From the NCBI GenBank assembly GCA_026005015.1, contig BPKG01000001.1, forward strand, positions 1 to 64,000: 64,000 nucleotides of DNA, read 5' to 3'. Positions 26,664 to 54,414 of the stretch are shown one piece after another. The notes beneath the pieces are model-generated. The model had not been told where the DNA came from. It saw only the letters and a program-made list of their open reading frames with translations, and did no database searches. The DNA is from Burkholderiales bacterium (GTDB lineage Bacteria; Pseudomonadota; Gammaproteobacteria; Burkholderiales; UBA6910). Within the stretch, counting starts at the first letter, position 1. Every line of letters starts with the position of its first letter. Made by a program: the position numbers and the translations under genes.

Positions 26664-27284
26664 ATGGCCCAAGCTCCACCCGACGAAGACACTCCTGGCG
26701 AGAGCCCCCTCGACGTGGCGGGGTGGCTGACCCGGCACGGAGACGCGCTCCTCCATTATGCCCTCGTCATGGTAAAAAATGAAGAGCAGGCGAAGGACCT
26801 GGTCCAGGAGACCCTGCTCGCCGCCTGGAAGGGGCGCCACGGCTACCAGGGGCGGGCGTCGGAGAAGACCTGGCTCACCGCCATCCTCAAGAACAAGATC
26901 GCCGACCACTTCCGCGCGAGCGTCCGGGAGGCGCTGGCGGCCGGGCCCTTCGACCCGGACGCCATCGGGGCGGAGGACGAGGAGTCCTGGCGCGAGGACG
27001 GGCACCACGCCGTCCCGCCCGGGACCTGGGGCGACCCGGAGGCGAGCCTGGAGCGGGCCCGGTTCTGGGAGGCGGTCCAGGCGTGCCTGGACGATCTGGC
27101 CGAGCTCCAGCGCTCGGCCTTCGTCCTGCGAGAGGTCCACGGGATCGAGGCGGAGGCGATCTGTAAGGACCTGGGGATCACGGCGTCTAATTTATGGGTG
27201 TTGTTGCACCGGGCCCGCCATCGGCTGCGCCGATGCCTCGAAAAGCGGTGGTTCGAATCCGCCCAGAGAAACCGAGATCCATGA
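26664..27284 (+). CDS. ECF RNA polymerase sigma factor
   Basis: Group 4 sigma-70 factor of 206 residues from ATG 26664. Region 2 is ALVMVKNEEQAKDLVQETLLAAW with KTWLTAILKNKIADHFR; region 4 contains LAELQRSAFVLREVHG and the helix-turn-helix ICKDLGITASNLWVLLHRARHRLRRCLE. The stop overlaps the start of a zinc-finger anti-sigma gene (ATGA), a classic sigma/anti-sigma pair. A longer frame from 26556 exists but crosses the promoter. The signal it answers is unknown. It is a relative of the mercury-island sigma at 43048. Confidence 0.9.
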   Translation: MAQAPPDEDTPGESPLDVAGWLTRHGDALLHYALVMVKNEEQAKDLVQETLLAAWKGRHGYQGRASEKTWLTAILKNKIADHFRASVREALAAGPFDPDAIGAEDEESWREDGHHAVPPGTWGDPEASLERARFWEAVQACLDDLAELQRSAFVLREVHGIEAEAICKDLGITASNLWVLLHRARHRLRRCLEKRWFESAQRNRDP

Positions 27285-31793: not shown

Positions 31794-32216
31794 TCACCCT
31801 TCCGACAGGGTGGCGATGATGGGGCAGGCGAGCTTACCGCGGCGCGCGTGGCACTCGCCGATTAGGGCCTTGAGCACCCGGCGCATGCGCTGGAGGTCCG
31901 CGATGCGGCTCTCCACCGCCGCGAGCTTGGCCGTGGCCAGCCGCTGCGCCTCGGCACAACTTCGCCCGTCCTCGAGGGCGAGGAGGTTGCGGACTTCCTC
32001 CAGGGTGAAACCGAGCTGCTGCGCCCGCTTGATGAAGCGCACCCGGTCCACGGCCGTCCGGGGGTAGCGGCGCACGCCCCCGAAGGGCTTTTCCGGTTTA
32101 TCCATGAGCTTGCGCCGCTGGTAGAAGCGGATCGTCTCCACGTTGACTCCGGCGGCGCGGGCCACCTGCCCGACGGTCAACGTGTCCGCCGGTCCCGGTC
32201 CTTTCATCTTCGCCAT
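31794..32216 (-). CDS. merR: mercury-responsive regulator MerR
   Basis: A 140-residue MerR-family activator/repressor. The N-terminal HTH is LTVGQVARAAGVNVETIRFYQRR. The three Hg(II) ligands of MerR are present: C87 in GRSCAEA, and C122 and C131 in ECHARRGKLACPII with the exact C-X8-C spacing. ATG 32216 was chosen for its AAGGAGCGATC site. It is divergent from merA1 across a MerR-type operator. This is the only full-length, unbroken MerR with all three ligands in the island, so it probably serves the other operators too. Confidence 0.95.
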   Translation of the reverse strand: MAKMKGPGPADTLTVGQVARAAGVNVETIRFYQRRKLMDKPEKPFGGVRRYPRTAVDRVRFIKRAQQLGFTLEEVRNLLALEDGRSCAEAQRLATAKLAAVESRIADLQRMRRVLKALIGECHARRGKLACPIIATLSEG

Positions 32217-32225
32217 GATCGCTCC

Positions 32226-32256
32226 TTGACTGCGGACTATGGTACGCAATGCAGGC
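32226..32256 (+). promoter_or_regulatory. mer operator/promoter 1 (merA1)
   Basis: TTGACT (32226-32231), a 19-bp spacer and GCAGGC (32251-32256). Dyad GCGGAC-TATG-GTACGC fills 32232-32247, directly after the -35 box, the position MerR occupies at the Tn501 PmerT promoter. The -10 box is poor. Transcription from here would start near 32263, so merA1 must begin downstream of the ATG at 32249. Confidence 0.8.
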
Positions 32257-32293
32257 TATCCCCGTCCGAACCGTTTGGGAAGAAGGGGGCATC

Positions 32294-33691
32294 GTGACTT
32301 CTCTGCACATCGCGATTATCGGCAGCGGCTCGGCGGCGTTCGCCTGCGCCATCCGCGCCGCCGAGGAAGGGGCGCGGGTTACCATGATCGAGCGCGGAAC
32401 CTTGGGCGGCACCTGCGTCAACGTGGGTTGCGTGCCTTCCAAGGTGCTCATCCGCGGCGCGGAGATCGCCCGCCTGCAGGCGGCTCATCCGTTCGACGGC
32501 CTGGAGCGGCGGCGGCCGGTCATTCGCCGGAACGCCATGGTGGCCCAGCAGCAGGCGCTGGTGGATCGGTTGCGCCACGCCAAGTACCGCCGCGTCCTGG
32601 AGGAAAACCCTAACATCCGGCTGCTAGAGGGATCGGCGCGGTTTCGCGACTCCCACTCCCTCGTGGTCACCGGCCGCGACGGCCGGGAGGAGACCGTCGC
32701 CGCTGATCGCTTTCTCATCGCCACCGGCGCTTCCCCCGCTATCCCGCCGATCCCCGGCCTGGCCGGTACGCCTTACTGGACTTCTACCGAGGCCCTGGTG
32801 GCGGAGGAAGTTCCCGAACACCTGATCGTGCTGGGGGGCTCCGCCGTCGGGCTGGAGATCGGCCAGGCGTTCTTGCATCTGGGCGCCCGGGTGACCATCG
32901 TCGAGCTTCTCTCCCTGTTGCCCAGAATGGATCCCGACTTGGGAGCAGGGCTTCAGCACGTGCTGGAGGAAGAAGGCGCGCGAATCCTCACCCGGACCGA
33001 AGTTAAGCGGGTCGCGTACGCGGGCGGGCGCTTTACTCTCGATGCTGGGGCTGAGCAGATCACCGGCGACAGGCTGCTGGTGGCCACCGGCCGGCGGGCC
33101 AACACCCTGGGGCTCGGACTTGCGGAAATCGGGGTCGAGACCGACCGGGCGGGCGCCGTCCTAGTCGACCAGGGCCTGCGTACTTCGGTGCCCCATATCT
33201 ACGCCGCGGGCGACTGCACGGGCTTTCCCCAATTCGTGTACGTGGCGGCGGCGGCCGGCACCCGGGCCGCCATTAACATGCTGGGCGGGGATGCGCGCCT
33301 GGACCTCTCCACCATGCCCGCAGTGGTTTTCACTTCGCCCCAAGTGGCGGCGGTGGGGTTGACCGCGGAGGAGGCCCGGACGAGGGATTTCGAGGCGGAA
33401 AGCCGGACCTTGCGCCTGGAAGACGTTCCCCGGGCGCTCGCCAACTTCGATACCCGGGGCTTCGTCAAGCTGGTCGCGGAGCGGGGAAGCGGGCGACTGC
33501 TCGGCGCCCATGTGCTTGCCCCCGAGGCGGGGGAGATCATCCAGGCGGCCGCTCTCGCGCTGCGTGCCCGGATGACCGTGGCCGAGCTGGCCGATCAGCT
33601 TTTCCCCTACTTGACCATGGTGGAAGGCTTCAAGCTCTGCGCCCAGACGTTTACCAAGGACGTCAAGAAACTCTCCTGCTGCGCGGGATGA
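32294..33691 (+). CDS. merA: mercuric reductase MerA, without HMA head (copy 1)
   Basis: Flavoprotein that reduces Hg(II) to volatile Hg(0) with NADPH. From GTG 32294 it has 465 residues: FAD motif IAIIGSGSAAFACA, redox pair C41/C46 in [13 protein letters not shown], an NADPH-binding Rossmann fold, a dimerisation domain and the C-terminal Cys pair in KLSCCAG. The N-terminal heavy-metal-associated domain is absent. GTG is preferred because the frame's ATG at 32249 lies upstream of the expected transcript start; AGAAGGGGG precedes the GTG. Confidence 0.95.
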   Translation: MTSLHIAIIGSGSAAFACAIRAAEEGARVTMIERGTLGGTCVNVGCVPSKVLIRGAEIARLQAAHPFDGLERRRPVIRRNAMVAQQQALVDRLRHAKYRRVLEENPNIRLLEGSARFRDSHSLVVTGRDGREETVAADRFLIATGASPAIPPIPGLAGTPYWTSTEALVAEEVPEHLIVLGGSAVGLEIGQAFLHLGARVTIVELLSLLPRMDPDLGAGLQHVLEEEGARILTRTEVKRVAYAGGRFTLDAGAEQITGDRLLVATGRRANTLGLGLAEIGVETDRAGAVLVDQGLRTSVPHIYAAGDCTGFPQFVYVAAAAGTRAAINMLGGDARLDLSTMPAVVFTSPQVAAVGLTAEEARTRDFEAESRTLRLEDVPRALANFDTRGFVKLVAERGSGRLLGAHVLAPEAGEIIQAAALALRARMTVAELADQLFPYLTMVEGFKLCAQTFTKDVKKLSCCAG

Positions 33692-33708: not shown

Positions 33709-34171
33709 ATGAAGACATACACGATCTCGAAACTGGCTCGGAACGCCAAGGTCAGCATCCATCTCGTGCACAACTATACCGAGCGTGGATTGCTAAGGGC
33801 ATGTGGCCGCACGCTCTCTGGTTATCGCATTTATGACGCGAGCGCCCTGGAGCGCCTGCGATGGATCCGCGCGGGGGAGAGCGGCTGGCATTCCTCTCGA
33901 TGCGTTGGCTGAAGTTGTTCACGCGCTGGACGAGGACGACGAACGACGAATGGCTCGCGGTGTCGCGACGATCCGAGCGTATATCGCAGGCGTGCGCAGC
34001 GCGTTGGCTGTTCTGGATGCCGCACTGATCGTCCTTCGGAAGCCGCCTGGACCCGGCAAAGAGGCCGTGGGCATCCCACGACCCACGCCCCGTGTGCGCC
34101 GATCGGCCGGCACACTCGGGACGCTTGAGCCGATTACCGCTTCGGAAGCCGAAATGCCCTCGGGCGCTTGA
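33709..34171 (+). pseudogene. merD: mer co-regulator MerD, frameshifted
   Basis: MerD resembles MerR but lacks Hg ligands, and it down-regulates mer expression. The start MKTYTISKLARNAKVSIHLVHNYTERGLL is MerD-like. The frame breaks at an extra T (33886) in an SG-G-IPLDALAEVV context; removing it joins the rest (LDALAEVVHALDEDDERRM... to the stop at 34171) and gives about 153 residues. As sequenced, translation stops after 67 residues. It follows merA1 by 17 bases. The -35 box of the next operator overlaps its stop codon. Confidence 0.82.
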
Positions 34172-34198
34172 CATTGTACTTAGGTACCTTCTCTAGCA
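34168..34198 (+). promoter_or_regulatory. mer operator/promoter 2 (merT operon)
   Basis: TTGACA (34168-34173), a 19-bp spacer and CTAGCA (34193-34198). Dyad TTGTAC-TTAG-GTACCT fills 34174-34189, in the same register as operator 1. It drives merT-merP-merA2 and probably the genes that follow. Confidence 0.85.
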
Positions 34199-34231
34199 TT
34201 CGCCACGATATTCATACCTTGGAGGTGATCG

Positions 34232-34660
34232 ATGTCGCGAGTCAAAGACCATGCGTTGGAAGCTGGAACACTCAAGGCGGAGCGTGCTTTGAACAGCCGC
34301 CAAAGTGCCAAAGACAAACTCGTAGGCGGTGCGCTGGCGGGAGGGGTGCTTGCCGCGGTCGGTGCATCGCTGTGCTGCCTGGGACCCCTGGTCCTAGTGA
34401 GCCTGGGCTTCGGGGGCGCCTGGATGGCGAACCTGACCGCGCTCGAGCCCTATCGACCCTTGTTTCTCGTCGCCGCGGTGACCGCCCTGGTTCTCGCCTA
34501 CCGCAAGCTCTACCGCGCCCGGCCGGAGCAAGCGTGCGCCTCCGGCGCTGTCTGCGCGACGCCGCGCGTCGATCGCCTGTACAAGGCTTTGTTTTGGGCC
34601 GTCTCCGCGCTGGTCTTGCTGGCCGGGGCCTCACCCTACCTTGCCCCCCTGTTCTACTGA
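34232..34660 (+). CDS. merT: mercuric ion transporter MerT
   Basis: Inner-membrane protein that takes Hg(II) from MerP and passes it to MerA. The 142 residues have a longer N-terminal cytoplasmic segment than usual, then TM1 with the Cys pair C48/C49 (GASLCCLGPLVL), a cytoplasmic loop with C102 and C108 (ACASGAVCAT), and TM3. A strong TTGGAGGTGATCG site precedes the ATG. It is the first gene after mer operator 2. Confidence 0.95.
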   Translation: MSRVKDHALEAGTLKAERALNSRQSAKDKLVGGALAGGVLAAVGASLCCLGPLVLVSLGFGGAWMANLTALEPYRPLFLVAAVTALVLAYRKLYRARPEQACASGAVCATPRVDRLYKALFWAVSALVLLAGASPYLAPLFY

Positions 34661-34688: not shown

Positions 34689-36694
<2,006 letters not shown>

Positions 36695-38477: not shown

Positions 38478-39425
38478 GTGTCTACCATCTCTAGCGATAG
38501 GGCTTCGGCTGGAACAAGGCCGGTCGATCCTGCCCTTGGGATCGAGCCGCCGGTAGCGCTGGTCCTGTGCGGCGGCAACAGTCGGGGTGCCTTGCAGGTC
38601 GGCTTCTACTGGGCGTTGTGGGAGCTGGGGTTGCGCCCCGATTTCGTCATTGGAAGCTCGATCGGTGCCTTGAATGGAGCGTTCATCGCGGCAGGAATGA
38701 GCCCGGATGCGCTGGCGGAGCTTTGGCTCAAATTCCGGCGCAGGGATGCCCTCTCGTGGAACCTGCCGTGGCTGTTCGGCTTGCGTGACCAACCCGGGCT
38801 GTTCAGCCTGGAACGTCTGCGTCGAACCCTGCGGCAAGCCCTCCCTGTCCAGCGCTTCGAAAAGCTCGAGATGCCATTGACCGTGGTGACCACCGATCTG
38901 CAGCTCGGCGCGCCTGTTTACTGGTCTGGCAGTGGGGATCTCATCGAGCCCGTCGTGGCTAGCATGAGTCTCCCGGGGCTGTTTCCGCCTGTCGTCATCG
39001 GCGCCCACCAGCATGTAGACGGCGGTGTGGCCAACAAGGCCCCCCTGGACAGGGCTTACGAATTAGGCGCCCGTACCGTGCTGATGATCGAATGTGTCTG
39101 CTGCGATCCGGTCCTGAAACGCTACATTAGCCTGCTCGAAGTAATGACCCGGAGTTTTTCCATCGCCATGGACAGCAAGTACAACGTCGATCTCGAGCGG
39201 TTGGGCTCTCTGGTTCGTATCCATGTGGTGCGTCCCAGGCTGGCCTGGGATATCGGGCTGCTCGACTTTTCCTACACGGCAGAGCTGATCGAGGCGGGCT
39301 ACCGGCAGAGCATCGAGTATCTTGTCCCCCTTGCGCAGGCGCAGAATGCCCTGACGTGTGCTCCTGTAGTTCCGGGAGCGAGCGGAACGGACACGCTCAC
39401 CGGCCTGGTAGAGAGAAGCTCATGA
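38478..39425 (+). CDS. patatin-like phospholipase
   Basis: A 315-residue lipid acyl hydrolase with the complete patatin dyad: oxyanion motif CGGNSRGALQVG (31-42), nucleophile S61 in GSSIG and D181 in VDGGVA. No signal peptide is visible. It sits in the mercury operon, 27 bases after merB and 4 bases overlapping the following merR-type gene, so it is probably co-transcribed. A role in membrane repair after Hg damage is conceivable but is only inference. Confidence 0.85.
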   Translation: MSTISSDRASAGTRPVDPALGIEPPVALVLCGGNSRGALQVGFYWALWELGLRPDFVIGSSIGALNGAFIAAGMSPDALAELWLKFRRRDALSWNLPWLFGLRDQPGLFSLERLRRTLRQALPVQRFEKLEMPLTVVTTDLQLGAPVYWSGSGDLIEPVVASMSLPGLFPPVVIGAHQHVDGGVANKAPLDRAYELGARTVLMIECVCCDPVLKRYISLLEVMTRSFSIAMDSKYNVDLERLGSLVRIHVVRPRLAWDIGLLDFSYTAELIEAGYRQSIEYLVPLAQAQNALTCAPVVPGASGTDTLTGLVERSS

Positions 39426-39875
39426 CCAGCCGCGCCCTGACCATCGGAAAGCTGGCCAAAGCGGCCGGCGTGATCGTCGAGACGATCCGCTATTACCAAA
39501 GAATCGGCCTGATCGAACAGCCGCAGAAGCCTGCTTACGGCTTCCGCCATTATCCGCAGGATACGGCGGATCGGGTGCGGTTCATCAAGCGGGCCCCAGC
39601 AGCTTGGGTTCAGTCTCGACGAGATCAGGGAACTGCTTGCGCTGGACGCGGGACGCTGCGACGACGCGCGGCAGCTCGCCGCGAACAAGCTTACCCAGAT
39701 TGGCGCGCGCATTGCCGCCCTTCAGGCCCTGCAGCACACGCTGCAGGTGATGATGGAAGCTTGCGAACGAAAAGAAGCGGGCCTTAAGTGCCCGGTCGTC
39801 GAGGCGCTCATCGGGAATCGGCAGGACATGGACAGACGCCGGAACGGGGCTCCGGTGAAGCGCGCGGTAAAATGA
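39422..39875 (+). pseudogene. merR: second mercury-type MerR regulator, frameshifted
   Basis: A MerR regulator of about 150 residues after removing one extra C in the run 39594-39597. The N-terminal part has the HTH (LTIGKLAKAAGVIVETIRYYQR) and HYPQDTADRVRFIKRA. The shifted frame continues QQLGFSLDEIRELLALDAGRCDDA, with all three Hg-type ligands (Cys in GRCDDA, then C-X8-C in EACERKEAGLKCPVV). As sequenced it would end in a scrambled tail at 39787. Its stop overlaps the EAL gene start (ATGA). Confidence 0.82.
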
Positions 39876-40681
39876 TGCCCGATGTGACGGCCTTGCGACT
39901 CGCGCTCCAACAGGGCGAGCTGCGGCTTTATTATCAGCCCTCGGTGGATCTGCGCTCAGGAGTCGTGAACGGGGTGGAGGCGCTTCTCCGATGGGAACGG
40001 CCGGGGCGGGAGATCCGGTTGCCTTCGACGTTCATCTCCCTCGCCGAGGAGTCCGGGCTCATCGTGTCTCTCGGCGTCTGGGTATTGCGCACCGCGTGCG
40101 AGCAAGCCAAGGCTTGGCAAAGGAACAGCCTGAGCGGATTGACCGTCGCGGTCAACGTCTCGCCCTGGCAGTTCCAGGAAGGGCACCTGCACGAGACGGT
40201 GGCCAGGATCCTGGGGGAGACGGGCCTTGCGCCCGAGGGGCTTGAGCTCGAGATTACCGAGAGCATCGCCATGGCGCGCGAGGAACACGCCATCGCATCC
40301 CTCAAGGCGTTGAAGGCAATGGGCGTGAACCTCTCGATCGACGATTTCGGCACGGGCTATTCGTCGCTCGCTCAGCTCCAGTGCTGTCCGGTAAGCAAGC
40401 TCAAGATCGATAGTTCGTTTGTCGGCAATCTTGCACGCAACACGCCGGACAAAGCGATCGTCCAAGCGATTGTCTTTCTCGGTCATAGCCTTGACATGAG
40501 GGTCACGGCCGAAGGCGTGGAGACCGAGCAACAGCTCGAACTGCTGCGCGGTTATGGCTGCGACGAAATCCAGGGATTCCTCGTGAGCCCGGCCGTGCGT
40601 GCAGAGATGGTTCCCGGCGAGCTAAAGCGTTGGGGGATCAAAGCCGCATCGGAGCGTGAGCCGTGTCCTCGAGACCTCTGA
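39872..40681 (+). CDS. EAL-domain cyclic-di-GMP phosphodiesterase
   Basis: A stand-alone 269-residue EAL domain with no sensor or membrane region. The catalytic motifs are in place: EALLRW (36-41), LELEITES, IDDFGTGYSSL, KIDSSFV and AEGVET, ending with CDEIQGFLVSPAV. It should hydrolyse c-di-GMP. Translationally coupled to the upstream MerR-type gene and running into the next one, it is tied to mercury regulation by position. Confidence 0.88.
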   Translation: MMPDVTALRLALQQGELRLYYQPSVDLRSGVVNGVEALLRWERPGREIRLPSTFISLAEESGLIVSLGVWVLRTACEQAKAWQRNSLSGLTVAVNVSPWQFQEGHLHETVARILGETGLAPEGLELEITESIAMAREEHAIASLKALKAMGVNLSIDDFGTGYSSLAQLQCCPVSKLKIDSSFVGNLARNTPDKAIVQAIVFLGHSLDMRVTAEGVETEQQLELLRGYGCDEIQGFLVSPAVRAEMVPGELKRWGIKAASEREPCPRDL

Positions 40682-41149
40682 CGGTTGGACAGCTTGCCCG
40701 CAAGACCGGCGTCCACGACCAGGGCGATCCGGCATTCCGAGCGTCTGGGGCTGATCAAGGCCGCGGGTCGCACGGGCGCGAACTACCGGGTTTTCGGCGC
40801 CGGCAGCGTTACCCGCCTGAACTTCATTGCGAGATGTCGTTCCCTGGGCTTCTCTCTCCCGGAGGTCAAGGATCTGCTTTAGGTCATGGAGGGTCCTCGT
40901 TACACCTGCGCTTAGGTCGAGAACCTTGCGAGGCAGCACCTGAATCTCGTCGATGCAAAGTTTAGAGAGCTCTTGGCGGTACGCCGCGCACTTGCTCGAG
41001 AGCTTAACCGTTGCACCGGCGAGGAAGTTCCCGATTGCCGGCTGCTGGAACACCTTCAGCCGAGCACCGCCATAGAAATCCGGGCCGGCGTGCGGACGCG
41101 AACCCCCGCAAAAGGCCGTCCTAGCACGCCGGCCGATCAGGGCGCATGA
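40663..41149 (+). pseudogene. third MerR-family regulator, decayed
   Basis: A remnant of a MerR-type gene. It starts at GTG 40663 with LTVGQLARKTGV, shifts frame near 40711, continues as TTRAIRHSERLGLIKAAGRTGANYRVF in overlapping parts and RCRSLGFSLPEVKDLL, then meets an in-frame TAG at 40880-40882 and another about 30 bases on. After that the same frame still encodes VENLARQHLNLVDAKFREL and a C-terminal C-X7-C (RCTGEEVPDC). A frameshift plus two stops make it inactive. It most resembles CueR-like members. Confidence 0.8.
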
Positions 41150-41226
41150 GGGCCCTTAACTTTTTTCCGTCCACCCGGGGATGTGGTTGGTTGTAGTGTG
41201 GGGTGGCTGAACGATAGGAGGGAAGG

Positions 41227-41510
41227 ATGTCAAAGCGTCAATGGATCGTTGTGCAAGTGGAGGGTATGACTTGCGACGGTTGCGCTGCCCCATGTGCGGA
41301 AAGCGCTTTCCGCAATGGAGGGGGTCGAAGAAGTCCGGCTGCCCAATTGGCAGGCTGGCAAGGCGGAGGTGGCTGGTCAAAGGCGAGCTGGCCGACGAGA
41401 CCATCGCCCGTGCGGTCGAAAGCGCAGGTTACCGGGCGCTCGTGCGCGAGCGACGCGAGCTGGACGCCGGGCGCAAGGTTCCGCAGAGGCGAGGCGGACA
41501 GACTACGACC
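41227..41510 (+). pseudogene. HMA head of merA3, broken by three indels
   Basis: ATG 41227, with a GGAGGGAAGG site, begins MSKRQWIVVQVEGMTCDGC, a normal HMA metal motif. The domain then jumps frames: RKALSAMEGVEEVRLPNW in the second frame, VKGELADETIARAVESAGYR in the third, and back to the second at TDYDLVIVGGG. The likely indels are an extra C at about 41288-41291, an extra G near 41372 and a compensating change near 41500. Each piece is well conserved, so the lesions are recent or technical. Confidence 0.75.
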
Positions 41511-42895
41511 TCGTGATCGTGGGCGGCGGCTCGGCGGCCTTCGCTGCGGCGATCAAGGGCGCCGAGCTGGGCGCCAAGGTTGCCATCGTCGAGCACGGCA
41601 CCCTCGGCGGCACCTGTGTCAACATCGGGTGCGTGCCGTCCAAGACGCTCATCCGCGCGGCCGAGCACTGCTACCACGCTGCCTATTCCGCCTTTGAGGG
41701 ACTGGGCGCTTGTCCGCCACCTCAGGACTGGCAGCGCGTCGTCCGGCAGAAAGACGAGCTGGTCGCCGCCCTGCGGCAGGGCAAGTACGTCGACGTAGCA
41801 AGCGCTTATCCCGGCATCACCATCGTGAAAGGCCACGCCGAGCTCACGGGCGGCCACGGCGTCGCCGTGGACGGCAAGCCCTTGAGCGCTGCCAAGCTCC
41901 TGGTGGCCACGGGCTCGAAGCCCTGGGCACCGCCGATTCCGGGTCTTGCCGAGTCGAGCTACCTCGACAGCACCGACGCCCTGAGCCTGGAGCGCTTACC
42001 CGCGACCCTCGCGGTGATCGGTGCTGGTGCGATCGGGCTCGAGCTCGCGCAGCTCTTCAACCGCTTCGGCGTCAAGGTCACGCTCCTCGAGGCCGGCCCC
42101 CGCATCGCACCTCAGGAGGAGCCCGAAATCGGGAAGGCCCTGTGCCGCTACCTCGAGGAAGAAAAAATGCAGGTGCTTTGCGGCGCGGCGATCGAGCGTG
42201 TGAGCCGGAGCGAGGCCGGCTACCGGCTTGAGGCCGTCGTGGATGGCAAGATCCGCGCGATCGAATCCGAGCAGTTGCTCGTTGCCACCGGCCGTCGGCC
42301 GACCACGGCCGGCTTCGGCCTCGAGCGTGCCGGGGTGAAGCTCGGCGAAAGGGGCGAGATCCTCGTCGACCGGCACTTGCGCACCGATAACCCGGATATT
42401 TTCGCCGCCGGCGACTGCATCGGCGATCCCATGTACGTTTATGTGGCGGCTTACGCCGGAAGCCTCGCCGCCGAGAACGCTCTCACCGATGCGGGCCGGA
42501 TCTACGATCTCGTGCCGCTGCCGCGGGTGACCTTCACCGACCCCCAGATCGCCAGCGTCGGTCTGACCGAAGCTCAGGCGCGGGCCGAAGGCAGAAAAGT
42601 GCGCGCGTCGGTGCTGTCGCTCAGCGAGGTTCCCCGCGCTATCGCGGCTCGGAATACGAAGGGGCTTATCAAGCTGGTGGCCGAGGAGGACACCGGCAAG
42701 CTGCTCGGCGCTCACGTGCTGGCGGCCGAGGCTGGCGAAGTGACCCAGGAGGCCGTCCTTGCTATCCGCTTCGGCTTGCGGGTGCAGGACCTCGTCGAGA
42801 CGTTCCACCCATATCTCACCATGGTCGAGGGCCTGAAACTCGCCGCGATAACGTTCACCAAGGACGTGAAGCAGCTCTCCTGCTGCGCTGCGTAG
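41294..42895 (+). CDS. merA: mercuric reductase MerA core (copy 3)
   Basis: An open frame of 533 codons whose first 70 codons are partly scrambled HMA sequence. From about 41510 it encodes a complete MerA core: LVIVGGGSAAFAAAIKGAELG, redox pair in GGTCVNIGCVPSK, an NADPH fold (AVIGAGAIGLELAQLF), AAGDCIGDPMYVYVAA and the terminal Cys pair in QLSCCAA. It differs from copies 1 and 2 along its length (NIGC, HCYHAAYSAFEGL) and so belongs to another MerA lineage. No MerR-type operator stands in front of it. Translation may start at 41227, 41294 or an internal GTG. Confidence 0.85.
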   Translation: MRKALSAMEGVEEVRLPNWQAGKAEVAGQRRAGRRDHRPCGRKRRLPGARARATRAGRRAQGSAEARRTDYDLVIVGGGSAAFAAAIKGAELGAKVAIVEHGTLGGTCVNIGCVPSKTLIRAAEHCYHAAYSAFEGLGACPPPQDWQRVVRQKDELVAALRQGKYVDVASAYPGITIVKGHAELTGGHGVAVDGKPLSAAKLLVATGSKPWAPPIPGLAESSYLDSTDALSLERLPATLAVIGAGAIGLELAQLFNRFGVKVTLLEAGPRIAPQEEPEIGKALCRYLEEEKMQVLCGAAIERVSRSEAGYRLEAVVDGKIRAIESEQLLVATGRRPTTAGFGLERAGVKLGERGEILVDRHLRTDNPDIFAAGDCIGDPMYVYVAAYAGSLAAENALTDAGRIYDLVPLPRVTFTDPQIASVGLTEAQARAEGRKVRASVLSLSEVPRAIAARNTKGLIKLVAEEDTGKLLGAHVLAAEAGEVTQEAVLAIRFGLRVQDLVETFHPYLTMVEGLKLAAITFTKDVKQLSCCAA

Positions 42896-42978: not shown

Positions 42979-43009
42979 TTGACTCTGTATCCGAGTACCG
43001 CGTCTAGCC
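42979..43009 (+). promoter_or_regulatory. mer operator/promoter 3 (ECF sigma gene)
   Basis: TTGACT (42979-42984), a 19-bp spacer and CTAGCC (43004-43009). Dyad CTGTAT-CCGA-GTACCG fills 42985-43000, in the same register as operators 1, 2 and 4. The ECF sigma ATG lies 38 bases after it. Confidence 0.78.
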
Positions 43010-43047
43010 TTTGATACGAGGGCGCCCTGTGAGCAAGCCATGGCACC

Positions 43048-43800
43048 ATGAGTCAAAGCGGTATGACGGGAGATACCATGCCCCCCAACCATCGCATCGC
43101 CCAGCCGGTCAATGGCGGTCGCCCGCTGGGGGGACAGGTAGACCCCGCATCGCTGCAGCCCCATCTTGGTTACCTGTACCGCTTCGGGTTGGCACTAGCC
43201 CGCGACCCCGAGATGGCGCGCGAGGCGGTCCAGGAAGCCCTGGTCTGCGCGTTAGAGAATCTGGCGTCGTTCGAGGGGCGCTCGTCGCTGCGTTCGTGGC
43301 TGGCCAGTATTGTCAAGCACCAGATCATTGATTTGCAGCGGGAAGCCACGCGGCGGGTAGCGATTGACTTCTCGCCGGACTGGGAGAGCGATGAAGAAAG
43401 CGCACAAGGGGAGCTTGCCCATGGAGCGACGAGGGATTTTATCGTCGACGGGCGCACGCCGGAGCAGGCGATGGAGGCTCGCGAGCTCTGGAACGTGGTT
43501 GGCCGCTGTCTCTCCGGAATGCCCGAGAAGCGAGCGCAAGCCTTCGTCCTACGGGTGCTCATGGGCGAACCCCTCGGCGTAGCCTGTAAGGCGGCAGACG
43601 CGGTTTCTATGAACGCCTGTTCAGCGATGCTGTGGCGAGTGAAAGCCTGTCTGCGACGGTGCCTTGTGCGGGCCGGTTACATGACTTCGTGTGCCCCGGC
43701 AGAGAATTGTTGCTGCACGTCGCGTGCAGGGTCGGCGGGGGAGGGGGCCGCCTCCCAGGAAGGTGACGGCCTAAGACGGAAAAAGATGCGAGGAGGGTGA
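43048..43800 (+). CDS. ECF sigma factor with cysteine-rich tail, in the mercury island
   Basis: A 250-residue group 4 sigma factor. Region 2 is RFGLALARDPEMAREAVQEALV with SLRSWLASIVKHQIIDLQRE (about 45-98); region 4 is MPEKRAQAFVLRVLMGEPLGVAC with an HTH-like NACSAMLWRVKACLRRCL (about 158-206). It is a relative of the sigma at 26664, but no anti-sigma gene follows. Instead it has ten cysteines, including C215 and C221-C223 in the tail, like the Cys-rich domains of CorE-type metal-sensing sigma factors. A MerR-type operator precedes it. ATG 43078 is an alternative start. Confidence 0.82.
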   Translation: MSQSGMTGDTMPPNHRIAQPVNGGRPLGGQVDPASLQPHLGYLYRFGLALARDPEMAREAVQEALVCALENLASFEGRSSLRSWLASIVKHQIIDLQREATRRVAIDFSPDWESDEESAQGELAHGATRDFIVDGRTPEQAMEARELWNVVGRCLSGMPEKRAQAFVLRVLMGEPLGVACKAADAVSMNACSAMLWRVKACLRRCLVRAGYMTSCAPAENCCCTSRAGSAGEGAASQEGDGLRRKKMRGG

Positions 43801-43804
43801 CCTT

Positions 43805-44443
43805 ATGAGTAACAGTGTGAATATCGGTACCGCACTTCCTAGGTTGAAAATCACACGGGATCCCATTTTGGCGAGACCGGCTTTCCTCGCGCCGGGGATG
43901 CTCAAACCGGATGCGCTCGCCCTGAACGTCATGACCGACTTTCGGCAGGTAACCCCGATCACCGTGGACGGCGGGATTTCCATCGACCAGGCTCTGCAGC
44001 ACATGATCCATTCGGGCGTGCGGCTGCTGTTCGTGACCGGCCGCGATGCCCGCTTGATCGGGCTCATCACCGCCGACGATATCCAGGGGGAGAAGCCGTT
44101 GCGATACCTGCAGGCGATCGAATGCAAGGATCGGAGCTGTTCCCGGCGCGATGTCCTGGCCCGGAACATCATGACGCCCGTGGCCGACTGGGAAGTACTG
44201 GACTACGAGGCCGTGCGCCGGGCGAGCATCGCCCAGGTGGTCGCCACCTTCAAGGCCACAGGATGCCGCCACCTGGTGGTGGTCGAACGCCCACCCGAGC
44301 CTGGCCGGTGCATCGTGCGGGGCCTTTTTTCGGCGAGCCGGCTCGAGCGGGAGCTCGGCCTGGGTATCGATGTTCTGTGCATGGCCAAGAGTTTCGCCGA
44401 CATCGAACGAGTGCTCGCACATCCTCATGGCGAGTGCGACTGA
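43805..44443 (+). CDS. CBS-domain pair protein
   Basis: A 212-residue cytoplasmic protein with two CBS domains (about 45-95 with VTPITVDGGISIDQALQHMIHSG, and 120-200 with IMTPVADWEVLDYEAV), which usually bind adenine nucleotides. No catalytic domain is attached. It starts 5 bases after the ECF sigma gene and precedes merE, so all three probably share operator 3. Its regulatory target is unknown. Confidence 0.8.
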   Translation: MSNSVNIGTALPRLKITRDPILARPAFLAPGMLKPDALALNVMTDFRQVTPITVDGGISIDQALQHMIHSGVRLLFVTGRDARLIGLITADDIQGEKPLRYLQAIECKDRSCSRRDVLARNIMTPVADWEVLDYEAVRRASIAQVVATFKATGCRHLVVVERPPEPGRCIVRGLFSASRLERELGLGIDVLCMAKSFADIERVLAHPHGECD

Positions 44444-44476: not shown

Positions 44477-44722
44477 ATGAACTCCGAAAAAAGCGCCGTC
44501 CGGCGGCGAGGCGGTTACGCCATGATGTTCCTCGCTGCGCTGACCTGCCCTTGCCACTTGCCTGTTCTTGCGCTTTTGCTCTCGGGGACTGCAGCGGAGG
44601 CCTTTCTGACCGAGCACATGGGAGTGGCGTTGACGGTGCTGGGGGCCTTGTTCCTGCTCTCGCTGTCCGCCGCCATGCGGCTGTTGCGGAATGACGCTGC
44701 GCGAGGAGGATCGAATTTGTAG
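44477..44722 (+). CDS. merE: mercury transporter MerE
   Basis: A small inner-membrane protein of 81 residues with two helices and the MerE signature LTCPCHLPVLALLLSGTAA (C24 and C26). MerE of Tn21 transports both Hg(II) and methylmercury. ATG 44477 is chosen because the upstream GTG is part of the GGAGG ribosome site. It is the last mercury gene before the insertion-sequence remnant. Confidence 0.9.
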   Translation: MNSEKSAVRRRGGYAMMFLAALTCPCHLPVLALLLSGTAAEAFLTEHMGVALTVLGALFLLSLSAAMRLLRNDAARGGSNL

Positions 44723-53897: not shown

Positions 53898-53929
53898 GGG
53901 GAAACAAGATTTATTAACATTTCCACCCT

Positions 53930-53960
53930 TGACCCTGTACTAACGTACACAGAATAAATT
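53930..53960 (+). promoter_or_regulatory. MerR-type operator/promoter 4
   Basis: TTGACC (53930-53935), a 19-bp spacer and ATAAAT (53955-53960). Dyad CTGTAC-TAAC-GTACAC fills 53936-53951, in the same register as the three operators of the mercury island. The MerR-family gene begins 25 bases downstream, so the regulator probably controls itself. Confidence 0.85.
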
Positions 53961-53985
53961 TGCCTCCGCCAAGCGAGGAGGGGGT

Positions 53986-54414
53986 ATGGAAGGGTGGACC
54001 ATCGGGGAAGTGGCCCGGCGGGCGGGCGTCGGCGTCGAGACGATCCGCTTCTACGAGCGGGAAGGGCTGATCGAGCAGCCTCCCCGGCCGAAGGGCTCGG
54101 GCTATCGCCGCTACCCGGAGGCCACCGTCCTCCGCATCCGCTTCATCCGCCAGGCGCGGGATCTGGGTTTTTCCCTCAAGGAAATCGGCGAGCTGATCCA
54201 CCTGCGGGGGCTCCCCGGTGCGGACGCCTCCCAGGTGCGCGCCTGGGTGGAGACCCGACTCGCCCAGGTGGACCAGCGCATCGACAAGCTCCAGCGGTTG
54301 AGGCGCGTCCTCGAAGCCCTGATCGCCACCTGCCCGATGGAAGGGCCCCTGTCCCAGTGCGCTATCATCCACGCCCTGGAGCAGGGCGTCATCGCGATCC
54401 AGACTGAAGAATAG
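53986..54414 (+). CDS. MerR family regulator, orphan, metal specificity uncertain
   Basis: A 142-residue MerR-family protein: HTH WTIGEVARRAGVGVETIRFYER, long dimerisation helix, and C116/C125 with C-X8-C spacing (CPMEGPLSQCAII) as in MerR, ZntR and PbrR. The first ligand of those sensors (a Cys near position 80) is absent; the region reads GLPGADASQVRAW. Either another ligand completes the site or it senses something else. No transporter or reductase gene follows, only a convergent gene. GGAGGGGGT precedes the ATG. Confidence 0.88.
   Translation: MEGWTIGEVARRAGVGVETIRFYEREGLIEQPPRPKGSGYRRYPEATVLRIRFIRQARDLGFSLKEIGELIHLRGLPGADASQVRAWVETRLAQVDQRIDKLQRLRRVLEALIATCPMEGPLSQCAIIHALEQGVIAIQTEE

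What the first reader, a model, noticed from the sequence alone, without database searches (positions are those of the whole stretch)
42979..43800. An ECF sigma factor placed behind a MerR-type operator in the mercury island
The promoter at 42979-43009 has TTGACT, a 19-bp spacer and a dyad exactly where MerR binds, 38 bases upstream of the sigma ATG. MerR-type promoters normally drive transporter or reductase genes. If functional, MerR-Hg would switch on a sigma factor and thus a second regulon. I know of no described mer operon with this design.
Basis: partly seen in the sequence, partly recalled or inferred. Interest (0 to 1): 0.85.

Follow-up and report, generated by a model that had tools for sequence, protein, structure and literature searches.

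The report
Mercury-operator-linked sigma factor operon
In a bacterial mercury-resistance island, a fast-evolving copy of one of the host's own gene-switching proteins (an ECF sigma factor) sits directly behind what looks like a genuine mercury-responsive MerR switch and heads a small operon ending in a mercury transporter, so mercury may turn on a second layer of regulation; a looser version of this arrangement already exists in a known type of mercury transposon.

Summary
A mer-type operator/promoter lies at 42979-43010. A matrix built only from merT operators of 50 mer loci of related genomes ranks it joint first in the 64-kb window (23.9 bits; best of 30 shuffles 6.7). A mer-operator consensus has exactly three perfect matches in the 3.38-Mb genome, all in this island: before merA1, before merT and before the sigma gene. 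The spacer is best read as 20 bp, as in relatives, not 19. The sigma start is probably ATG 43078. The promoter heads sigma-CBS-merE, so a transporter is still in the transcript. The island holds one intact MerR with the three Hg-binding cysteines.

The sigma is sister to the host's own chromosomal ECF sigma (support 100/98) on a tenfold longer branch. Its -35-reading region 4.2 is remodelled but not randomly decayed, its tail has four cysteines, and no anti-sigma gene is adjacent. None of 50 merA loci in the order has it.

"No described mer operon with this design" is too strong. A Tn5044-type transposon (NZ_CP071949) carries merRTPCA-sigma-merD-merE, with the sigma downstream of PmerT; that sigma is from another ECF clade. 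New here: promoter-proximal sigma with its own operator. Function is inferred only.

The parts
42979..43010 (+). mer-type operator/promoter: -35 TTGACT 42979-42984, dyad CTGTATCCGAGTACCG 42985-43000, -10 TAGCCT 43005-43010 (20-bp spacer)
43048..43800 (+). ECF sigma factor ORF; likely start ATG 43078 (GGGAG at about 43069-43073); region 2 clear, region 4.2 diverged, Cys-rich tail CAPAENCCC
43805..44443 (+). CBS-domain protein, second gene of the putative operon (4-bp gap)
44477..44722 (+). merE, broad-spectrum mercury transporter, third gene of the putative operon
   Evidence: PRK13747 88.5 bits, above cut-off 80
31794..32216 (-). merR, only intact MerR in the mer island; Cys87/122/131 equivalent to Cys82/117/126 of the MerR in L062
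32226..32257 (+). mer-type operator before merA1
34168..34199 (+). mer-type operator before merT-merP-merA2
32249..33691 (+). merA1 (possible start GTG 32294)
34232..34660 (+). merT
   Evidence: merT homology
34988..36694 (+). merA2 with N-terminal HMA domain
41227..42895 (+). merA3, intact catalytic domain, frameshifted HMA domain; directly upstream of the sigma operator

Best explanation
The island is a three-transcript mer regulon under one MerR. The third transcript is sigma-CBS-merE, started from the MerR operator at 42979. When Hg(II) binds MerR, the over-long 20-bp spacer is untwisted and the housekeeping RNA polymerase transcribes the operon. This makes more MerE and also a burst of an ECF sigma that has no adjacent anti-sigma, so its activity would follow its own synthesis (possibly tuned by metal on its cysteine tail). 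The sigma is a captured and strongly diverged copy of the host's chromosomal ECF at C2:223427; its region 4 has been remodelled, so it probably reads different -35 elements and drives a small, still unknown set of genes. Shown: operator as sequence, gene order, intact ORF, sister relation to the host paralogue, accelerated but constrained evolution, absence from other mer loci of the order. Inferred: MerR binding, Hg induction, operonic transcription, sigma activity, any regulon.
For: Operator matrix trained on relatives; genome-wide uniqueness of three island sites; intact MerR with Cys triad; gap of 4 bp sigma-CBS and about 34 bp CBS-merE with no plus-strand terminator-like site between; sister relation to own C2 paralogue, 100/98, branch 1.94 against 0.19; no zf-HC2 anti-sigma gene near it, the genome's three lying elsewhere; open frame over 240 codons despite this divergence, and in region 4 positions conserved in the family are kept far more often than variable ones (13/20 against 4/23, p = 0.002), which argues against neutral decay; predicted region 4 superposes on E. 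coli sigmaE region 4 bound to -35 DNA (TM 0.74 by target). Precedent that mer operons can carry a sigma gene: L062.
Against: Region 4.2 falls below Pfam's cut-off (14.6 of 25.7 bits, second half unmatched) while the paralogue and the L062 sigma score 41-42; one extra residue in the helix-turn-helix turn and loss of otherwise conserved residues at 170, 179 and 199. AlphaFold confidence is modest (mean 58, region 4 about 70). Several neighbouring genes are frameshifted, so the island is partly decayed or the assembly has slips. No terminator-like site separates merA3 from the sigma gene, so read-through from upstream is possible. No orthologous locus exists to test conservation.
Confidence: 0.5

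Rival explanations
1. The promoter is a working MerR/Hg switch, but its useful product is merE (and perhaps the CBS protein). The sigma is a captured passenger with a damaged -35-recognition region and controls nothing.
For: Region 4.2 below Pfam cut-off, TIGR02943 score 112 against cut-off 162; branch ten times that of its sister; tail composition not codon-like; no conservation in 50 merA loci.
Against: Intact frame; conserved core positions preferentially kept in region 4; region 2 64% identical to the paralogue (44/69); region 4 fold predicted.
Confidence: 0.3
2. The sigma acts locally as an amplifier or brake inside the mer island, as may be the case for the sigma of Tn5044-type mer operons, rather than running a separate regulon.
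For: An ECF sigma inside a mer operon occurs independently in L062, which suggests a recurring local use; a mer-linked patatin gene is shared by both loci (51%).
Against: No target promoter identified in either locus; the two sigmas are of different ECF clades.
Confidence: 0.12
3. The site is a chance or relic mer operator left by recombination between mer modules and is not bound or not active.
For: Imperfect dyad (4 of 6), weak -10 (3 of 6), island with frameshifted mer genes.
Against: Scores as high as the operator at the merR-merA1 junction and above that of merT in the same island; 20-bp/TAGCCT form identical to a merT promoter in L116.
Confidence: 0.08

Closest known systems
Tn5044-type mer transposon (P. 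aeruginosa plasmid NZ_CP071949.1, L062: merR/merTPCA-sigma70-merD-merE-patatin-DUF3330, Tn3-family tnpA, PIN/RHH pair)
   Same: ECF sigma gene between merA and merE in a MerR-controlled mer cluster; mer-linked patatin gene (51% identical) in both
   Different: Sigma follows merTPCA in one operon with the only operator before merT; it belongs to another ECF clade (30% identity); merD in place of CBS. From memory, not verified here: the original Tn5044 paper (Kholodii 2000) reports a sigma-like gene, sigY.
TIGR02943-type ECF sigma of the same genome (G000:C2:223427, L002)
   Same: Sister protein, 41-46% identity, support 100/98
   Different: No mer-type operator in front (none on contig C2 up to 2 mismatches), slow branch, canonical region 4, no Cys tail
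Canonical mer promoters (Tn501/Tn21 PmerT)
   Same: TTGACT, over-long spacer, MerR dyad
   Different: 19-bp spacer in the classical form (PMC11049809); here 20 bp and TAGCCT; first gene is a sigma, not merT
CorE-type ECF sigma (Myxococcus xanthus, PMC3107203)
   Same: C-terminal cysteines after region 4, no linked anti-sigma
   Different: Four tail cysteines arranged CX5CCC, not the CorE pattern (Cys181, 184, 192, 194 conserved; six in all); no evidence of direct metal control

Membership tests
MerR(Hg)-type promoter | TTGAC -35, over-long (19-20 bp) spacer with the MerR dyad between -35 and -10 | tested here: met
   dyad imperfect, 11/16 to CCGTACATGAGTACGG
MerR(Hg)-type promoter | bound by MerR and induced by Hg(II) | not testable with these tools
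   needs footprint and reporter
MerR(Hg)-type promoter | MerR with Hg-binding Cys triad encoded in the genome | tested here: met
   merR 31794-32216, above TIGR02051 cut-off (160.8 of 150.85), Cys87/122/131
ECF sigma factor | sigma-70 region 2 | tested here: met
   PF04542 44.5 bits, cut-off 24
ECF sigma factor | sigma-70 region 4.2 helix-turn-helix | tested here: inconclusive
   PF08281 14.6 bits, below cut-off 25.7, half covered; alignable and fold predicted
TIGR02943 sigma family | score above curated cut-off 162.2 | tested here: not met
   112 bits, although its sister scores 191
Tn5044-type sigma (SigY-like) | clusters with the L062 sigma | tested here: not met
   separate clades, 99/98
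CorE-type metal-sensing ECF | C-terminal Cys-rich domain with the CorE cysteine spacing | tested here: not met
   tail CX5CCC against Cys181/184/192/194 of CorE

The most novel reading that the evidence does not exclude
Mercury triggers, through MerR, synthesis of a dedicated ECF sigma whose -35 specificity has been re-made and whose cysteine tail also senses Hg(II) directly, giving a two-step mercury regulon: MerR sets the amount and the metal sets the activity of a second transcription factor.
Probability: 0.1. Interest if true: 0.85.

Novelty: new variant of a known kind. Interest (0 to 1): 0.52.

Why it matters
Hg(II) responses of mer operons are normally a single step, MerR to resistance genes. 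A sigma factor placed first behind its own mer operator would turn this into a cascade with a wider regulon. The independent appearance of an unrelated ECF sigma in Tn5044-type mer operons suggests that sigma recruitment into mer loci has happened at least twice. The sister pair (slow host copy, fast mer copy) is also a usable natural case of a sigma factor being re-targeted.

Tried and rejected
Orthologues of the sigma: none above 46% in 399 genomes of the order and 293 of the class; best plasmid hits about 31% over most of the protein; none by pattern scan of genome contigs. SigY-like query in genome contigs gave one locus without mer genes nearby apart from sigma matches. ECF genes near merA in L103 and L109: neither is inside the mer operon (L103 lies about 3 kb away on the opposite strand; L109 is about 600 bp past merA and followed by its own downstream gene set), so they were rejected as parallels. 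CBS protein as a marker of the same operon: widespread in the order without mer or sigma genes beside the best-matching copies, and only two distant plasmid hits. RNA structure in the leader: not better than shuffles. CorE-type tail: spacing does not match. Literature: no open-access text found describing a sigma gene in a mer operon; the sigY report for Tn5044 is from memory.

Full report
WHAT IS THERE. The window carries a mercury-resistance island from about 31.8 to 44.7 kb: merR (minus strand), merA1, a frameshifted merD, merT, merP, merA2, a merC-like gene, an unknown gene, a merB-like gene, a patatin-like gene, a frameshifted merR, an EAL-domain gene, a merR pseudogene, merA3, then the ECF sigma gene, a CBS-domain gene and merE, followed by a transposase-like gene. 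The genome is 3.38 Mb in 7 contigs.

THE OPERATOR. The site 42979-43010 reads TTGACT-CTGTATCCGAGTACCGCGTC-TAGCCT. A consensus of mer-type sites has three exact hits in the whole genome, at 32226 (before merA1), 34168 (before merT) and 42979 (before sigma), no hit with one mismatch, and otherwise only two-mismatch hits (window expectation 0.12). Because that consensus came from the sites themselves, I made an independent test: merT operators were taken from 50 merA loci of 48 other genomes of the order and a matrix was built from 32 distinct sites. In the window the four best hits are 32226 (23.9 bits), 42979 (23.9), 34168 (15.8) and 53929 (14.2, in front of another MerR-family gene at 53986); the best of 30 shuffled windows reaches 6.7. 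So the operator is real as sequence. The relatives contain a subtype with a 20-bp spacer and TATCCT/TAGCCT/TATACT as -10 (L115, L116, L119, L121, L125), and the sigma site fits that subtype, not the classical 19-bp TAAGGT form. The published MerR-binding symmetric sequence is CCGTACATGAGTACGG (PMC11049809); the sigma site matches it at 11 of 16 positions.

THE REGULATOR. One MerR in the island is intact (160.8 bits against cut-off 150.85) and keeps the three Hg-binding cysteines. Two other merR-like genes in the island are broken.

THE OPERON. Sigma and CBS are 4 bp apart, CBS and merE about 34 bp; no terminator-like site on the plus strand lies between them or between merA3 and the operator. 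The likely sigma start is ATG 43078 with GGGAG upstream; ATG 43048 has no such signal. Thus the promoter, if active, also drives a mercury transporter gene.

THE SIGMA. Region 2 is clear (44.5 bits). Region 4.2 is not: 14.6 bits with half the profile, against 41-42 bits for the host paralogue, the second sigma in the window (26676-27263) and the L062 sigma. The alignment shows one extra residue in the turn of the helix-turn-helix and changes at positions conserved elsewhere. In the tree the sigma is sister to the host's own chromosomal ECF at C2:223427 (100/98) with a branch of 1.94 against 0.19 changes per site. This is not plain decay: the frame is open over 240 codons, and in region 4 family-conserved positions are kept at 13 of 20 while variable positions match the sister at 4 of 23 (Fisher p = 0.002). 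These counts are modest and depend on the alignment. AlphaFold on a three-sequence alignment gives region 2 and region 4 helices at about 70-80 pLDDT, a disordered linker and tail, mean 58; the region 4 part superposes on E. coli sigmaE region 4 on -35 DNA (TM 0.74 by target). The tail holds CX5CCC, absent in relatives, and no anti-sigma gene is adjacent; the genome's three zf-HC2 matches lie elsewhere.

CONSERVATION AND PRECEDENT. None of the 50 merA loci has an ECF sigma inside the mer operon. No close relative of this sigma was found in 399 genomes of the order or 293 of the class. In a genome of the same family (G003) the contig end near its mer genes carries a fused remnant of the unknown gene (window 37.1 kb) and the CBS gene (L092:73-552), so part of this cluster is older than the species, but no sigma is seen there. 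The key precedent is plasmid NZ_CP071949.1 (L062): a Tn3-family element with the PIN/RHH arrangement listed for Tn5044 (PMC7157771) and the order merR/merT-P-C-A-sigma-merD-merE-patatin. There the sigma is downstream of PmerT with no operator of its own found. Three more plasmids carry the same sigma at 99.6% identity. That sigma is from a different ECF clade, so the two mer sigmas were recruited separately. From memory, the original Tn5044 report names a sigma-like gene sigY; I could not read it.

MECHANISM. Most likely MerR-Hg activates sigma-CBS-merE as a third transcript of the island regulon, and the sigma, without a linked anti-sigma, acts in proportion to its synthesis on promoters not yet known. 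The main rival is that merE is the point of the promoter and the sigma a damaged passenger. The data favour a constrained, re-targeted protein, but not strongly.

VERDICT.

Noticed in passing
window 33713-34172, 39423-39860, 40687-41150, 41227-41510: merD, a second merR, a third merR (frameshift plus two TAG) and the HMA domain of merA3 are frameshifted; some slips lie in C runs (possible assembly error), the merR with stops looks like real decay
   Followed up: partly
window 32249-33691, 34988-36694, 41227-42895: Three merA genes in one island under at least two separate mer-type operators
   Followed up: partly
window 38478-39425 and L062:9206-9997: Patatin-like gene in the mer island is 51% identical to the patatin-like gene of a Tn5044-type mer transposon: a mer-linked patatin of unknown role
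   Followed up: partly
window 39875-40681; L090, L092, L095, L099: EAL-domain (c-di-GMP phosphodiesterase type) gene in the mer island; EAL genes also lie next to merD/merE in several relatives
   Followed up: no
L092:73-552 (-): Reading frame fusing the start of the unknown gene at window 37.1 kb to a piece of the CBS gene, at a contig end next to mer genes of a same-family genome: trace of a deletion between the two
   Followed up: partly
window 53929-54414: MerR-family gene with its own mer-like operator; lacks the first of the three Hg cysteines, so its metal is uncertain
   Followed up: partly
L002:1438-2887: The host paralogue of the sigma is followed by a protein full of NPCAxK repeats around a cytochrome c-like CxxCH motif
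   Followed up: no
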